From Rheinheimera sp. EpRS3 (GTDB lineage Bacteria; Pseudomonadota; Gammaproteobacteria; Enterobacterales; Alteromonadaceae): DNA of 64,000 bases. Location: assembly GCF_001513785.1 (NCBI RefSeq), contig NZ_LNQS01000010.1, positions 124,001-188,000 on the forward strand, read 5' to 3'. A program made the translations under genes and the position numbers. This document shows positions 6,140 to 23,545 of this stretch, one piece after another; position 1 is the first letter of the stretch; each line of letters opens with the position of its first letter. The notes under the pieces are model-generated. The model did not search any database. It was not told the origin of the DNA and saw only the letters and a list, made by a program, of their open reading frames with translations.

Positions 6140-6226
6140 GCCCGGGTGGTGAAATCGGTAGACACAAGGGATTTAAAATCCCTCGCTCGAAAGGGCGTGC
6201 CGGTTCAAGTCCGGCCCCGGGCACCA
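6140..6226 (+). tRNA. tRNA-Leu (anticodon UAA)
   Basis: This is an 87-nt class II tRNA with an encoded CCA end. The acceptor arms GCCCGGG and CCCGGGC pair, the anticodon stem GGGAT/ATCCC encloses the TAA anticodon, a long variable arm (CGCTCGAAAGGGCG region) is present, and the T arm reads CCGGTTCAAGTCCGG. It decodes UUA and UUG. It lies divergently next to the leu operon and has its own promoter. Confidence 0.97.
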
Positions 6227-18282: not shown

Positions 18283-19509
18283 ATGCCACGTTATTCTGCT
18301 GAGTTTATTAAAGAGATGCCCAAATCTGATTTACACCTGCATCTGGATGGCAGCCTGCGGCTTGATAGTCTGATTGAAATGGCCAAACGCACCGGTACCA
18401 AACTACCTGCCGATAGCGTAGAAGGTTTAAAGCAGCTGGTATTTAAAGAAAAGTACAATAACCTGGGCGAATACCTGCATTGTTTTCAGTACACCTGTGC
18501 GGTACTGCGCGATATGGAAAACTTAGAGCGCGCAGCTTACGAACTGGCCATAGATAACCAGCTTGAAGGCGTAAACTATATTGAAGTGCGCTTTGCGCCG
18601 CAGCTGTTAATAGACTTACCTAACGGTATCGATTTTGACCGCGTGATGCATGCTGTTAATAACGGCTTAAAACGGGCGATGCAGGAATACAACCGCAGCG
18701 AAGTTGTGATGAGCGGCCAGAAGCCGCCATTTGCCTACGGCATTATTAACTGCGCCATGCGGATGTTTGGCGATAAAGGCTTTTCACCCTACTACACCAA
18801 CCTGTTTCAGCTGATGCGTGATTTTGCGCCAATCGATGTCATTAAGCTGGCGGCGATGGAGCTGGTGCGCGCCAGTGTGCGATTACGCGATGAAGAAGGT
18901 ATTCCTATTGTCGGGCTGGACTTAGCCGGCCAGGAATCCGGTTATCCGGCCAGTAAATTTAAAGAAGTGTACGAATATGCCCATCAGCACTTTTTGCTAA
19001 AAACGCTGCATGCCGGTGAAGCTTACGGCGCAGAAAGCGTATTTGAAGCGATAACCGAATGTTATGCCGACCGTATCGGCCACGGTTACTCTATGTTTAT
19101 CCCGGAGATGATCACCGACACCGACATCAGTGATAAAACCGCCTATATCCGTAACCTGGCGTCTTATATTGCTGATAAGCGTATCGCGATAGAAGTTTGC
19201 TTAACCAGCAACCTGCAAACCAACCCGGCTATTACCGATATAAAGCAGCATAAGTTTAAAAATATGCTGGAAAGCCGCATTGCCACCGTTATTTGTACCG
19301 ACAACCGTTTAGTGTCTAACACCACTGTAAGCAAAGAATACCAATTGGCGCTGGATAACTTTGATATTCCGTTAAAGCGGCTAAAAGACATCGTAGCCTA
19401 TGGCTTTAAAAAGAGCTTTTTTCCGGGCACTTATGTGGAAAAACGCGAATATGCCAAACAATGTCTGGAGTATTTTGACCACGTAGCAAAGCGATACGGA
19501 TTTATTTGA
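18283..19509 (+). CDS. Adenosine deaminase-family protein
   Basis: The 408-residue metal-dependent deaminase has HLHLDGS near residue 18 (two zinc histidines), HAGEAYG with the third histidine and catalytic glutamate near residue 246, DRIGHG near residue 265 and a zinc aspartate in ICTDN. It is about 70 residues longer than E. coli Add, and the last motif reads TDNRLVSN rather than the usual TDDP form. Adenosine to inosine is therefore the best guess, but another purine or adenine-containing substrate is possible. The start has GAGGAG 5 nt upstream. It is monocistronic. Confidence 0.85.
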   Translation: MPRYSAEFIKEMPKSDLHLHLDGSLRLDSLIEMAKRTGTKLPADSVEGLKQLVFKEKYNNLGEYLHCFQYTCAVLRDMENLERAAYELAIDNQLEGVNYIEVRFAPQLLIDLPNGIDFDRVMHAVNNGLKRAMQEYNRSEVVMSGQKPPFAYGIINCAMRMFGDKGFSPYYTNLFQLMRDFAPIDVIKLAAMELVRASVRLRDEEGIPIVGLDLAGQESGYPASKFKEVYEYAHQHFLLKTLHAGEAYGAESVFEAITECYADRIGHGYSMFIPEMITDTDISDKTAYIRNLASYIADKRIAIEVCLTSNLQTNPAITDIKQHKFKNMLESRIATVICTDNRLVSNTTVSKEYQLALDNFDIPLKRLKDIVAYGFKKSFFPGTYVEKREYAKQCLEYFDHVAKRYGFI

Positions 19510-19533
19510 TTAAAATCAATAATATAGATGCCA

Positions 19534-19616
19534 TGTCGCAAAAAGCATACACACTAAATCATTGAAAAATAACACTTTTAAAATTGCACCCTATTAACTG
19601 TTGCTAAACAGCGACA
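19534..19616 (+). promoter_or_regulatory. Two GlrR-like upstream activating sites
   Basis: Two matches to the enterobacterial GlrR motif TGTC-N10-GACA lie upstream of a sigma-54 promoter. TGTC-N10-TACA is at 19534-19551 and TGTT-N10-GACA is at 19599-19616. The second sits inside a larger palindrome with TTAACTGT and ACAGTTAA arms (19595-19621). They are centred about 160 and 95 bp before the promoter, a normal distance for an enhancer-binding activator, and a glrR homologue lies 3 kb downstream. Confidence 0.5.
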
Positions 19617-19700
19617 GTTAATTCCCCCACCTTGTTAGCCTCGCCCACAAGACAAAAGCAAACTACTGATTTATAAAGAGAATAAAATAATTTTCAAAGT

Positions 19701-19716
19701 TGGCACAAGGCTTGTA
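19701..19716 (+). promoter_or_regulatory. Sigma-54 (RpoN) promoter
   Basis: TGGCAC-N5-TTGTA matches the RpoN consensus TGGCAC-N5-TTGCA with one change (GC to GT at -12). The GG and GT elements have the correct 10-bp separation. Transcription would begin near 19727, about 127 nt before the 66-codon gene. Confidence 0.7.
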
Positions 19717-19731
19717 TTAGTTATGGCAAGC

Positions 19732-19807
19732 GACGATTCAGGAGAATGTCGCAAGCGCAACCAGATACACCGGAAGCTGCCTTTGCAACATTCTCCTTCA
19801 AAACGTC
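19732..19807 (+). ncRNA. Structured RNA leader downstream of the sigma-54 promoter
   Basis: The predicted transcript folds into a long hairpin. A perfect 10-bp stem AGGAGAATGT (19740-19749) with ACATTCTCCT (19788-19797) is extended inward by GCAAG with CTTTGC and outward by GACG with CGTC. It lies between the promoter and the ribosome site of the small protein. It could be a regulatory leader or the 5' part of a small RNA. I see no sequence proof that it is GlmY. Confidence 0.5.
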
Positions 19808-19853
19808 TTAACGCAGCCAAATCGAAATAGACGCTGCACTTACGGAGGTTGTT

Positions 19854-20054
19854 ATGGACTTTTTCTTACTTGGTACAGTGTTGTTTTTAATGGCTAATGT
19901 AGCTGTAGCAGTATCCATGTTACGCCGTGTTAATTTAAACAATGATAGCGTACTGGCTTGGGAGCAGGCTCAGGTTGTAGCAACACCAGCAGTTGCAGCA
20001 CCTCAGGTTCCAGCTACTCAGTATCAACCGGTTTATATGGCAAAGGCCGCTTAA
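19854..20054 (+). CDS. Small single-pass membrane protein of unknown function
   Basis: This 66-residue protein has one hydrophobic N-terminal helix (MDFFLLGTVLFLMANVAVAV), a short polar segment and an Ala/Pro/Gln-rich tail (ATPAVAAPQVPATQ). The ribosome site is excellent (GGAGG, 5 nt spacing) and a strong terminator follows, so the gene forms its own transcription unit behind the sigma-54 promoter. No family is recognised. Its position between a GlrR-type promoter and glrK suggests it belongs to the envelope-stress output of that system, but this is inference. Confidence 0.65.
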   Translation: MDFFLLGTVLFLMANVAVAVSMLRRVNLNNDSVLAWEQAQVVATPAVAAPQVPATQYQPVYMAKAA

Positions 20055-20101
20055 CAGCGCTTTGCATGATCCCATGAGTTCAGCACTTGCTGAATTTTTG
20101 T

Positions 20102-20132
20102 AAGGCCAGCACCCCACTGGCCTTTTTTTTTT
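20102..20132 (+). terminator. Intrinsic terminator after the small membrane protein gene
   Basis: AAGGCCAG pairs with CTGGCCTT around a 7-nt loop and is followed by about ten T residues. It closes the predicted sigma-54 transcript (about 405 nt) before glrK. Confidence 0.9.
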
Positions 20133-20182
20133 GCCGCTAAAATAGGGTATGCTTAACAGCCCTGTGATTAAGACAAACAATT

Positions 20183-21601
20183 ATGCGTTTTTCGATTCAG
20201 ACCGCGTCTTTACGCCAGTTAGTGCTGCTGAGTTTTTTCCTGGCCCTGATCCCCGTGGCGGTGCTGCTATGGCAAAGCCATAAAGCACTAAGCGGTGTTA
20301 GCCAGAATGCCGTAGCTGAAGCCGAAACCTCGGTGGCCAGTGTGCGCCGGGCAGAAAACATGCAAAATCTGGTGGTAGATATAGAGCGTGCAGTGCGCCA
20401 GCATGCCGTAGTCAAAACTGATGCGCTGGCCCGGGTGGCGCGCACCCACTTGAACAGCTATCAGCAATTACTGCGCCAGGTATGTGACAATGTAGGCCAG
20501 TCACAACTGTGCCAGCAGCAGCAACTTCAGCTAGACATACTACTGGATAACTTCATTGAGCTTAGCAGCACAGAACTTGAACCACTGATGCAGCAGTTCC
20601 GTCAGCAACAGCAACAGCTTACACAACAAATCTGGCTGCTGCTGGAGCAAAACCTGCAGCAACAACAACGCTTTGTGGTAGAAAGCCAGCAGCAACTGGC
20701 CTGGCAAACGGTAGCACTGGTGCTGTTAACCCTGCTGTTAGTGCTGTGGGCATCGGGCCGAATTACCGCACCGGTACGCAAACTGGATAAAATGATCCGC
20801 GCTATTGGCCAGCAACATCAGTTCCCTGATGAAAAACTGACCGGCCCGCGTGAGCTGGCAGAATTGGGTGAGCAACTGCGCTGGCTCAGCTCACGCCTGC
20901 AACAACTGGAAGCCTTACGGTTGATTTTACTGCGCCATGCTTCGCATGAGTTAAAAACGCCGTTGTCCAGCATTCGTGAAGGCTGCGCTTTGCTAAGTGA
21001 ACAATTGGTGGGGCCATTGAACAAACAACAACTGGAAGTGGTTGGCCTGCTCAACGGCAGTGCCGATCGGCTAAGCCAGTTAACCGAGCAACTACTGGAT
21101 TACAACCGCTTATTGCAACAAGCCAAACCCGAGCCCGACTGGCATTCGCCCCAGCAATTATTTACCGACTGCTTTAACGACCATGCGCTATCGTTGCAGC
21201 AACGCGGCCAGACTGTCGAACTCAGTTGCCAGCTAAGCGCAATTTATACCGATATTACGCTGTTCCGGCGTATACTCGACAATCTGATTAACAACGCGCA
21301 AGCGTATGGCAGCCAGGACAGCCCGGTGTGGGTAAAATTGTATCAGCAGGAACATCAGCTGATTTTAGATGTCGCAAATAACGGCAATCCTATTCCGACA
21401 TCATTAAGGGAAAAACTGTTTGAGCCATTTCAGCGCGGCACTACACCGCGCTTTGACTCAGTACAGGGTTCTGGCCTGGGGCTGTCTATCGTTGCCGACT
21501 GCGCCCGCCTGCTAGGCGGCCACGCTGATATTGTTGATGTAATTTATGCCGACGTCTGTATCCGGGTGCGGCTACCGCTATTAGAGGAAAAACTGGGATG
21601 A
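20183..21601 (+). CDS. glrK: Sensor histidine kinase, GlrK/QseE-like
   Basis: The 472-residue inner-membrane kinase has two transmembrane helices (about residues 11-29 and 172-192) around a periplasmic domain very rich in glutamine and predicted helical. HAMP follows, then a HisKA helix with the phospho-acceptor in HASHELKTPLSS near residue 253, and an HATPase domain with NLINNAQAYG, a GSGLGLSIV G-box and an ordinary C-terminus. The gene overlaps the next gene by 4 bp (ATGA). The order kinase, lipoprotein, sigma-54 regulator is that of glrK-qseG-glrR in Enterobacteria. Confidence 0.88.
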   Translation: MRFSIQTASLRQLVLLSFFLALIPVAVLLWQSHKALSGVSQNAVAEAETSVASVRRAENMQNLVVDIERAVRQHAVVKTDALARVARTHLNSYQQLLRQVCDNVGQSQLCQQQQLQLDILLDNFIELSSTELEPLMQQFRQQQQQLTQQIWLLLEQNLQQQQRFVVESQQQLAWQTVALVLLTLLLVLWASGRITAPVRKLDKMIRAIGQQHQFPDEKLTGPRELAELGEQLRWLSSRLQQLEALRLILLRHASHELKTPLSSIREGCALLSEQLVGPLNKQQLEVVGLLNGSADRLSQLTEQLLDYNRLLQQAKPEPDWHSPQQLFTDCFNDHALSLQQRGQTVELSCQLSAIYTDITLFRRILDNLINNAQAYGSQDSPVWVKLYQQEHQLILDVANNGNPIPTSLREKLFEPFQRGTTPRFDSVQGSGLGLSIVADCARLLGGHADIVDVIYADVCIRVRLPLLEEKLG

Positions 21602-22209
21602 AAACTGGGTTAATTTTTGTGGCCATACTGGCACTTAGCGGCTGCCAGCTTGCACCACAACCGGTAGCGCCTGAACCAACGCCTGAACCGTTACTGGAGG
21701 CTGAACCCGAACCGGTAGTACTGCCAGAGCCTGAGCCGGTAAAAACACCTTTGGCCATTACCGACGACGCCGCCACCTTACAGGCCTGGGTAAATTACCG
21801 CGCAGCCATGCTAAACCGCATTAATGAAGAGCGCGATTTACTTAACAGCGAAACGGCTCAGGATGATGTCTGGCTACTAAAGCGCACCATTTTACAACTA
21901 CACCCCGATACGCCTTACCTTACCCGCTTGCGGGTGCAAATGCAGTCGGCTGATCAACTCGCCGCTTTACCTGCGCCTTTGGCTGCACTACTAAGCTGGG
22001 ATCTGGTGTTTAATCAAAAACTGCTCGAAGCCGAATCAGCGGTAAGTGCCTTAACCCGGCTTAATGCGCAGCAGCACGATAATATTGAGCGGCTGCAAAA
22101 AACCAATAAAGAACTGCAGAAAAAAATTGATGCGCTAACCCAGATAGAAGCGCAGCTGAATCAGCCCACGCCGGTTAAAGAGGACGACAATGGCCAGCCC
22201 CAGCCCTAA
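21598..22209 (+). CDS. QseG-like outer-membrane lipoprotein
   Basis: The 203-residue lipoprotein has a signal peptide ending in the lipobox LSGC near residue 16. A Pro/Glu-rich linker (residues about 20-50) follows, then a helical domain with a terminal coiled coil (ERLQKTNKELQKKIDALTQIEAQL). In E. coli the protein encoded at this position, QseG, is an outer-membrane lipoprotein that binds and activates the GlrK/QseE kinase; the same role is inferred from gene order. The frame overlaps glrK by 4 bp and glrR by 20 bp. Confidence 0.72.
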   Translation: MKTGLIFVAILALSGCQLAPQPVAPEPTPEPLLEAEPEPVVLPEPEPVKTPLAITDDAATLQAWVNYRAAMLNRINEERDLLNSETAQDDVWLLKRTILQLHPDTPYLTRLRVQMQSADQLAALPAPLAALLSWDLVFNQKLLEAESAVSALTRLNAQQHDNIERLQKTNKELQKKIDALTQIEAQLNQPTPVKEDDNGQPQP

Positions 22210-23545
22210 GCCTAAGTTACTGCTTGTAGACGATGATCCAAGCTTACTGCGCTTATTAACCCTGCGCCTTGAAGGCGAAGGTTATCAGGTGATCAGCGCG
22301 GATTCAGCTGAAGCGGCTTTACCTTTGCTGATGAAAAACAGCGTTGATGTGGTATTAAGCGATTTGCGGATGCCAGGCCTGGACGGTATGAGCCTGTTTG
22401 ATGAAATTGCCAAACGTTACCCTGGCTTGCCGGTAGTGCTGATGACAGCGCATGGCTCTATTCCCGAAGCAGTCGCCGCTACCCAACGTGGTGTATTTGG
22501 CTTTTTAACCAAACCGCTTAACACTAATGAGCTGCGTGATATCTTGCAAAATGCGGTGCATCAGTCAGTACCTGAGCAAGCCGAATGGCGCGCCGAAATT
22601 ATCACCCGCTCGCGCCTGATGGAAGAGCTGCTGGAACAAAGCTACCGCGTAGCACAGCGCGATGTCAGCGTGTTGATCACCGGCGCCAGCGGTACTGGTA
22701 AAGAGCTGCTGGCAAAAGCGATCCATAAAGCCAGCCCACGCGGAAGTAAGCCATTTGTCGCCATTAACTGTGGCGCCCTGCCAGAGCATTTGCTGGAATC
22801 GGAATTATTTGGCCACACTAAAGGCGCTTTTACCGGTGCCGTTACCGAGCACGGCGGCCTGTTTCGTGAAGCCGATGGCGGCACCCTGTTTTTAGACGAA
22901 ATTGGCGATATGCCGGTGTCGTTACAGGTAAAACTGCTGCGCGCACTGCAAGAGCGGCAAATACGCCCGGTAGGCAGCAGTAAAACCGTCCCGATCAACG
23001 TGCGGGTGCTGTCGGCGACTCACCGTGATTTACAGCAGGCGATGGGCGATGGCAGTTTTCGTGAAGATTTATACTACCGCTTAAACGTGGTTAACCTGCA
23101 ACTGCCCAGCCTGGAACAGCGGCCAGAGGATATTCCGCTGCTGGCGCGCCATGTGCTGCAACAAAGTGTTGAACGCCACCAGGTAGATGTAACCCGTTTT
23201 TCTGATGATGCGCTGCAGCTGTTAGCCACCGCCAAATGGCCCGGTAATGTGCGCCAGCTGGTAAACGTGGTAGAGCAATGCGTAGCGTTAACGCACAGCC
23301 CGGTTATTGGTGCGGCCCAGGTAGAGCAAGCGCTGTCGCATGACAGCAGCTACTGGCCAACATTAACCGAAGCGCGTGACCAGTTTGAGCGCCAGTACCT
23401 TATTCGCGTATTGCAGATGACAGAAGGCAATGTTACCCGCGCCGCAGAGCTGGCCGGGCGTAACCGTACCGACTTTTATAAATTACTGAAAAAACATGAA
23501 CTCAGCGCTGCCCAGATCACTGAGCAAAGCGATGAAACTGAATAG
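22190..23545 (+). CDS. glrR: Sigma-54-dependent response regulator, GlrR/QseF-like
   Basis: The 451-residue activator has an N-terminal receiver domain with the phospho-acceptor aspartate in VVLSDLRMPG (near residue 57) and an AAA+ domain. The AAA+ part carries Walker A GASGTGKE (near residue 166), the sigma-54-contacting GAFTGA loop (near residue 208) and Walker B GGTLFLDEIGDM. A C-terminal Fis-type HTH (NVTRAAELAGRNRTDFYKLLKKH) completes it. It needs RpoN to activate transcription. In E. coli GlrR drives glmY and rpoE; a matching sigma-54 promoter lies upstream of this cassette. Confidence 0.9.
   Translation: MASPSPKPKLLLVDDDPSLLRLLTLRLEGEGYQVISADSAEAALPLLMKNSVDVVLSDLRMPGLDGMSLFDEIAKRYPGLPVVLMTAHGSIPEAVAATQRGVFGFLTKPLNTNELRDILQNAVHQSVPEQAEWRAEIITRSRLMEELLEQSYRVAQRDVSVLITGASGTGKELLAKAIHKASPRGSKPFVAINCGALPEHLLESELFGHTKGAFTGAVTEHGGLFREADGGTLFLDEIGDMPVSLQVKLLRALQERQIRPVGSSKTVPINVRVLSATHRDLQQAMGDGSFREDLYYRLNVVNLQLPSLEQRPEDIPLLARHVLQQSVERHQVDVTRFSDDALQLLATAKWPGNVRQLVNVVEQCVALTHSPVIGAAQVEQALSHDSSYWPTLTEARDQFERQYLIRVLQMTEGNVTRAAELAGRNRTDFYKLLKKHELSAAQITEQSDETE

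What the first reader, a model, noticed from the sequence alone, without database searches (positions are those of the whole stretch)
19534..20132. Sigma-54/GlrR-type control of a structured RNA leader and a 66-residue membrane protein beside glrK-lipoprotein-glrR
The sequence directly shows a near-consensus RpoN promoter, two TGTC-N10-GACA-like sites upstream, a long perfect hairpin at the transcript start, a strong ribosome site for a 66-codon membrane protein and a strong terminator, all just before a GlrK/lipoprotein/GlrR cassette. In Enterobacteria GlrR acts at the same relative position to drive the small RNA GlmY. Here the position is filled by a transcript that also encodes a small membrane protein. 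This could be a GlmY-like locus with a coding function, or a different output of the same regulator.
Basis: partly seen in the sequence, partly recalled or inferred. Interest (0 to 1): 0.75.

Follow-up and report, generated by a model that had tools for sequence, protein, structure and literature searches.

The report
Stress-sensor locus driving small membrane protein
Beside a bacterial envelope-sensing gene pair, the spot where gut bacteria keep a regulatory RNA holds instead a gene for a tiny, well-conserved membrane protein with the same kind of switch in front of it, which suggests that the switch was kept while what it turns on was swapped between lineages.

Summary
In 44 loci that carry the small ORF (30 of 31 congeneric genomes plus two other genera), two GlrR-type sites lie 65 bp apart upstream of a sigma-54 box; in 42 of 44 both sites fully match the published TGT-N12-ACA consensus. 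The distance from the second site to the sigma-54 box moves in steps of about one helical turn (80/81, 91/92, 101/102, 112-114), with IHF-like motifs at fixed places. In 31 congeneric genomes the two-site pattern occurs at this locus in 30 and only twice elsewhere.

The 66-codon ORF is a real gene: found in 31 of 31 congeneric genomes, core dN/dS about 0.06, one predicted helix across the membrane.

The leader hairpin is real and covaries, but it is not universal. Arsukibacterium has no leader hairpin, and a sister genus has hairpins of unrelated sequence at the same place. The GlmY model finds nothing in this genome.

Other Alteromonadaceae genera have small EF-hand export proteins, some behind a different conserved RNA, at the equivalent place. 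Best reading: a conserved GlrR/IHF/sigma-54 promoter beside glrK with exchangeable outputs, here a small membrane protein whose action is unknown. No expression data were available.

The parts
19534..19551 (+). Upstream activating site 1 (TGTCGCAAAAAGCATACA; full TGT-N12-ACA)
   Evidence: aligned 65 bp before site 2 in related loci
19555..19567 (-). IHF-like motif (one mismatch), 3 bp after site 1
   Evidence: same place in 39 of 44 loci with at most one mismatch; consensus recalled, not from a call
19599..19616 (+). Upstream activating site 2 (TGTTGCTAAACAGCGACA), inside a 13-bp-arm palindrome 19593-19622
19659..19671 (-). IHF-like motif (one mismatch), starting 42 bp before the TGG of the sigma-54 box
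   Evidence: at -42, -32 or -31 in 33 of 44 loci
19700..19717 (+). Sigma-54 promoter box (TTGGCACAAGGCTTGTAT); predicted +1 about 19727
19740..19797 (+). Leader hairpin 1 (arms 19740-19759 and 19778-19797)
   Evidence: R2 model
19813..19837 (+). Leader hairpin 2 (GCAGC / GCTGC) just before the ribosome site
   Evidence: stem sequence differs but a stem is predicted in Alishewanella loci and L014
19844..19848 (+). Ribosome binding site GGAGG
   Evidence: for the 44 loci
19854..20054 (+). Small membrane protein gene, 66 codons
20079..20133 (+). Double hairpin and intrinsic terminator
20183..21601 (+). glrK/qseE-type histidine kinase
   Evidence: 34-36% identity to the kinase in enterobacterial-type loci
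21598..22209 (+). Lipobox protein in qseG position (no sequence similarity to QseG detected)
22190..23545 (+). GlrR/QseF-type sigma-54 activator
   Evidence: best NCBIfam match NF011695 GlrR, 695 bits, cut-off 763

Best explanation
This is the adjacent target promoter of a GlrK-GlrR (QseE-QseF) two-component system. Shown by comparison: two GlrR-type sites 65 bp apart, IHF-like motifs, a sigma-54 box at a helically phased distance, a hairpin-bearing leader of about 127 nt, a selected 66-codon ORF with one predicted membrane helix, and a terminator before glrK. Inferred: an envelope signal through GlrK, perhaps with the lipoprotein, phosphorylates GlrR; GlrR binds both sites, IHF bends the DNA, and sigma-54 polymerase makes a short one-gene mRNA. 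The mRNA yields a small inner-membrane protein with a conserved cytoplasmic juxtamembrane motif (LRRVxLNNxSVxAWEQ), which is the main output of GlrR in this lineage and acts on the envelope. The leader hairpins are most likely cis elements of the mRNA (5'-end protection or translation), not a GlmY-type trans-acting RNA. Across relatives the promoter beside glrK is kept while the transcribed payload is exchanged: GlmY, small membrane protein, EF-hand export protein, or another structured RNA.
For: Promoter: 65-bp spacing in 43 of 44 loci when free to vary 60-70 (L014 gave 63), both sites full TGT-N12-ACA at 65 in 42 of 44; distance to sigma-54 box 80/81, 91/92, 101/102, 112-114, phase coherence 0.95 at 10.5 bp; IHF-like motifs. 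Consensus TGT-N12-ACA, IHF assistance and three sites at glmY: passages of PMC6075780. Specificity: one locus per genome in 30 of 31 congeneric genomes, two hits elsewhere, four hits of the backward control pattern. Gene: 31 of 31 congeneric genomes; dN/dS medians core 0.05-0.12, tail 0.23-0.37; kinase gene directly downstream in 41 of 44 loci, two of the other three cut by contig ends; single helix 2-43. Not GlmY. Payload exchange.
Against: No expression, binding or phenotype data. The phase and IHF counts come from related loci and are not corrected for descent; the IHF shuffles kept only base composition. Enterobacterial distances (107, 102, 136, and about 219 bp) do not all fall on the same phase. 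GlrR is below the curated GlrR cut-off (695 of 763 bits), as are all 69 matches in 98 family genomes. Hairpin arms are 97% identical among 13 Rheinheimera where third codon positions are 56%: more sequence constraint than a passive stabiliser needs. 'Main output' rests on one strict pattern; single sites or other spacings would be missed.
Confidence: 0.7

Rival explanations
1. The leader, or the whole transcript, acts as a trans-acting small RNA (GlmY-like decoy or base-pairing RNA), alone or as a dual-function RNA that also encodes the small protein.
For: Same position and promoter type as glmY; covarying hairpin; arms conserved in sequence within Rheinheimera; strong terminator.
Against: No GlmY match. 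Hairpin absent in 8 of 30 own-genus loci and of unrelated sequence in g45. Loop varies in length and sequence (40% identity), so no conserved unpaired seed is visible. The ORF is under purifying selection.
Confidence: 0.12
2. The small protein is a feedback partner of GlrK (like MgrB with PhoQ, recalled), binding the kinase in the membrane and tuning it, rather than the effector.
For: Gene adjacent to the kinase in 41 of 44 loci; expressed from the regulator's own target promoter; single membrane helix with an invariant Asn15 in it.
Against: If this is GlrR's main target, a pure feedback device would leave the system without an output. No direct evidence of contact; complexes could not be modelled here. 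Other genera have unrelated proteins in this place.
Confidence: 0.25
3. The leader is a sensing element that controls translation of the ORF (metabolite, temperature or protein bound).
For: Two stems between the start and the ribosome site; arm sequence strongly conserved in Rheinheimera.
Against: Arsukibacterium loci work with a leader of about 19 nt; the ribosome site is unpaired in the predicted fold; no Rfam match at the curated thresholds and only chance-level matches below them.
Confidence: 0.1

Closest known systems
Enterobacterial glmY-glrK(qseE)-qseG-glrR(qseF) locus
   Same: Sigma-54 promoter with TGT-N12-ACA sites (two of them 63 bp apart, here 65), IHF-like motifs, directly upstream of the kinase gene; kinase, lipoprotein, regulator order (passages of PMC6075780).
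   Different: Enterobacteria have three sites in L179, L180 and L182 (two found in L183) and the non-coding RNA GlmY; here two sites and a protein-coding mRNA with unrelated hairpins. No QseG sequence similarity found.
EF-hand protein genes at the glrK promoter of other Alteromonadaceae genera
   Same: TGT-N12-ACA-like site, sigma-54 box at 80-82, 92-93, 104 or 112 bp, IHF-like motif at -31/-32 in 11 of 17 loci; small envelope-directed protein beside glrK.
   Different: Exported EF-hand proteins, co-oriented or divergent, no relation to the 66-residue protein seen; some have a different structured RNA.
5' stem-loop stabilisers of bacterial mRNAs such as ompA (recalled)
   Same: Strong hairpin near the predicted 5' end ahead of an accessible ribosome site.
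   Different: Stability effect untested; arm sequence is conserved within Rheinheimera; absent in some species.
MgrB-type small membrane regulators of histidine kinases (recalled)
   Same: Short bitopic protein made under control of the adjacent kinase-regulator pair.
   Different: No sequence relation tested or seen; predicted orientation and motif differ; regulation of GlrK untested.

Membership tests
GlmY sRNA (Rfam RF00128) | Match to the covariance model | tested here: not met
   No match in window, in 19500-20190 at E<=5 or in own genome at E<=10 (E. coli control rings). Positive loci L179, L180, L182, L183 score 79-127 bits.
GlmY sRNA (Rfam RF00128) | Sigma-54 promoter with GlrR sites directly upstream of the kinase gene | tested here: met
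GlmY sRNA (Rfam RF00128) | Non-coding transcript | tested here: not met
   ORF under purifying selection, present in 31 of 31 congeneric genomes
GlmY sRNA (Rfam RF00128) | Binds RapZ and spares GlmZ | not testable with these tools
   needs biochemistry
GlrR / QseF regulators | Score above the curated NCBIfam cut-off (NF011695, 763 bits) | tested here: not met
   695 bits, but by far the best of the NCBIfam matches shown (next 416); 0 of 98 family genomes exceed the cut-off
GlrR / QseF regulators | Receiver, AAA+ sigma-54 and HTH_8 domains; kinase-lipoprotein-regulator order | tested here: met
GlrR / QseF regulators | TGT-N12-ACA sites at a sigma-54 promoter next to glrK | tested here: met
   consensus from PMC6075780 passages
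QseG lipoproteins | Sequence similarity to enterobacterial QseG | tested here: not met
   tblastn of the lipobox protein against five loci gave only E>=2; no Pfam or NCBIfam match
Sigma-54-dependent promoter | Measured RpoN and activator dependence | not testable with these tools
   needs mutants

The most novel reading that the evidence does not exclude
GlrK-GlrR with its IHF/sigma-54 promoter is an exchangeable-output cassette: the promoter next to glrK is kept, with enhancer-promoter distance moving only by whole helical turns, while the transcribed payload is replaced by unrelated things (GlmY, a small membrane protein, EF-hand export proteins, another structured RNA). In Rheinheimera and relatives this promoter is essentially the regulator's whole two-site regulon, so the 66-residue membrane protein is the effector of a known envelope-sensing system, and GlmY is one late replacement among several.
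Probability: 0.4. Interest if true: 0.8.

Novelty: new variant of a known kind. Interest (0 to 1): 0.6.

Why it matters
GlmY is the standard example of GlrR output in enterobacteria. If the same promoter serves unrelated payloads elsewhere, comparing them should reveal what the sensor is really for. The small protein gives GlrKR a single, deletable candidate effector in a non-pathogenic genus. The natural series of enhancer distances (80, 91, 102, 112 bp) is a ready set of constructs for testing helical phasing at an IHF/sigma-54 promoter.

Tried and rejected
GlmY homology: rejected. Best weak Rfam hit, ncS54 at 25.3 bits against a threshold of 43, covers the end of the ORF and the terminator and is treated as chance. 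Repeat-element origin of the hairpin: rejected; the leader model finds this locus only in the own genome, plus its own antisense reading (strict filters). Short upstream ORF in the hairpin (ATG at 19747): considered by eye, not pursued, frame not kept when the loop length changes. Relatives of the protein in Pfam, NCBIfam, PDB sequences and plasmids: none. A profile search of 394 order genomes added no convincing new genus; six weak hits (E 7e-5 to 0.009) had no add or glrK match within their loci and were left. Seven weak hits (E 0.02-0.095) were not examined. Spread to other orders: 20 loci fetched of 95 GlrR-positive genomes; a kinase ORF was recognised in 18, only one (L159) showed a pair of sites, and Rfam called no GlmY there. 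Stricter site pattern was a poor choice and missed the sites. One search aligned wrong coordinates and is not used. One search failed on a script error and was redone.

Literature: searches were listings; passages were seen of PMC6075780, PMC3162934 and PMC8895600. No listed title treats this locus; GlmY with Alteromonadales gave 0 papers. PMC3045617 is not held, so enterobacterial details come from PMC6075780 and from my own loci.

Full report
WHAT IS THERE. Between an adenosine-deaminase-like gene (18283-19509) and a kinase-lipoprotein-regulator cassette lies a compact transcription unit: two upstream sites, a sigma-54 box, a leader with two stems, a 66-codon ORF with a good ribosome site, and a terminator. 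The regulator matches GlrR best among the NCBIfam families shown (695 bits, below the 763 cut-off). The kinase is 34-36% identical to the kinase of enterobacterial-type loci, and the middle protein shows no detectable similarity to QseG. The genome is a Rheinheimera relative: the protein is 100% identical to that of R. pacifica DSM 17616, and the close relatives are Rheinheimera, Arsukibacterium and Alishewanella.

IS IT MORE THAN CHANCE. Single sites are not; the arrangement is. The UAS plus sigma-54 pattern occurs once in the own genome, here, with no match of the backward control. The two-site pattern occurs at this locus in 30 of 31 congeneric genomes; the miss, G028, has one mismatch in site 1. 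Two matches lie elsewhere, against four for the backward control, so the strays are at background. I analysed 44 loci with the ORF: 30 of 31 own-genus genomes (G002 got no locus), 4 of 4 hits in g42 and 10 of 15 in g45. Spacing between the sites is 65 bp in 43 of 44 when 60-70 is allowed; the script chose 63 for L014. With spacing fixed at 65, both sites are full TGT-N12-ACA in 42 of 44. Distances from site 2 to the sigma-54 box are 80 (3), 81 (1), 91 (6), 92 (7), 101 (1), 102 (14), 112 (9), 113 (2), 114 (1).

HELICAL PHASE AND IHF. Coherence of these 44 distances at 10.5 bp is 0.95, but the loci are related, so this is only a few independent events. In the loci of other genera with an EF-hand or same-genus arrangement, 17 of 22 gave a usable distance: 80-82 (nine loci), 92-93 (six), 104 and 112. 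Five were dropped: L084 and L085 without a site, L089 without a sigma-54 box above threshold, L157 and L158 at 179. Coherence of the 17 is 0.87 at 10.7 bp, reached in 0 of 20000 uniform draws; several picks had to be chosen among candidate sites. IHF-like motifs with at most one mismatch (consensus recalled) lie 3 bp after site 1 in 39 of 44, and at -42, -32 or -31 from the box in 33 of 44. Base-composition shuffles contain one anywhere in the interval in 13% and 23%; perfect motifs occur in 16 and 14 of 44 against about 1%. In the other-genus loci a motif lies at -31/-32 in 11 of 17. Of the four enterobacterial loci with GlmY called, all have two sites 63 bp apart. Three fall in the range tested, each with an IHF-like motif within about 35 bp of the box; their distances of 107, 102 and 136 bp, and about 219 in L183, are not all in the Rheinheimera phase, which counts against a single strict rule.

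THE PROTEIN. It is present in 31 of 31 congeneric genomes and, in a sample of 295 family genomes, in genera g1, g42 and g45 at E below 0.02. Seven weaker hits of that call were not examined. Median dN/dS for the first 41 codons is 0.063 (Rheinheimera), 0.053 (Arsukibacterium), 0.054 (Alishewanella), 0.083 (g45) and 0.122 (g42); for the tail 0.34, 0.37, 0.28, 0.23 and 0.36. Many synonymous distances are near saturation. The core has a hydrophobic helix with an invariant Asn, then LRRVxLNNxSVxAWEQ; in the more distant g45 the motif is looser. AlphaFold gives one helix, residues 2-43, and a disordered tail, mean pLDDT 72. The basic residues after the helix suggest a cytoplasmic C terminus (inference). 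No Pfam, NCBIfam, PDB or plasmid relative was found. The kinase gene follows in 41 of 44 loci; L035 and L039 are cut by contig ends and L043 has none in reach.

THE LEADER. In the 22 own-genus loci with a long leader (Rheinheimera and Alishewanella) hairpin 1 covaries. On 20 sequences (19 of those loci plus L143) 7 of 20 pairs change on both sides; covariation score 0.177, 0 of 500 shuffles as high. One measure, further pair types, was not exceptional (202 of 500). RNAalifold found the same helix unaided. Yet 8 of 30 own-genus loci go from promoter to ribosome site in about 19 nt, and these match the 8 of 8 named Arsukibacterium. In g45, 10 of 10 loci have strong hairpins of unrelated sequence (L036 z -5.9). 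In g42 the one tested is not significant (L031 z -0.95). Among 13 Rheinheimera the arms are 97% identical, the loop 40%, third codon positions 56%, so something reads the arms' sequence there, or the structure tolerates little. The leader model matched 10 of 246 family genomes, all own genus and only at this locus, plus one borderline match at E 0.009 in another genus. I read the leader as a cis element of the mRNA; that is inference.

OTHER PAYLOADS. Of 36 loci from other Alteromonadaceae genera (38 fetched, less L118 and L119), I classed by eye 12 with a co-oriented exported EF-hand gene between promoter and glrK, 17 with a divergent one, 4 with another divergent exported small protein and 3 unclear. 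Pfam confirmed EF hands in 6 of 6 tested and none in the one other type tested. That the divergent genes use sigma-54 was seen by eye only in a few loci. In five genera a conserved RNA of about 175-195 nt lies there: 21 of 246 family genomes, one copy each, a kinase gene beside all 21. 12 of 24 pairs have two-sided changes, 0 of 500 shuffles for every measure, though the alignment is fitted to the model. Rfam gave no match at E<=1 in eight loci of which five carry it.

READING. The promoter grammar beside glrK is kept while the payload differs. Because the two-site pattern is nearly confined to this locus in the genus, the small protein is my candidate for the effector of GlrKR here. Feedback on GlrK remains a serious rival. 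Nothing here shows expression, binding or function.

Noticed in passing
L189-L209, positions about 1501-1690 of each: Unlisted structured RNA (about 175-195 nt) with an invariant TGGTTCCT loop, the motif GGCTGCGATGGCGTTTGCAAC and GGCAAGGATGCC, at the GlrR promoter of five other Alteromonadaceae genera; 21 of 246 genomes, single copy, strong covariation.
   Followed up: partly
L083-L087, L089-L095 (co-oriented); L096-L098, L100-L103, L105-L107, L109-L112, L116, L117, L120 (divergent): Small exported EF-hand proteins beside glrK near GlrR-type sites, sometimes two tandem copies when divergent (Pfam on six).
   Followed up: partly
L104, L108, L113, L115: Instead of EF-hand proteins, other small exported proteins, three of them rich in Lys, Glu and Ala, divergent from glrK.
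   Followed up: no
window 19740-19797 and L001-L017: Hairpin arms almost invariant (97%) in Rheinheimera while loops and synonymous sites have diverged: sequence-specific reading of a double-stranded stem is possible.
   Followed up: partly
window 19974-20051: The small protein's tail evolves fast: L007 is 79% identical to the window protein while its kinase is over 99% identical.
   Followed up: partly
L041, L043, L118: DNA inserted between the small gene and glrK in some g45 genomes; in G074 (L118) the small gene lies about 5 kb from glrR.
   Followed up: no
window 6140-6226: tRNA-Leu (TAA), the only curated RNA family match in the window.
   Followed up: no
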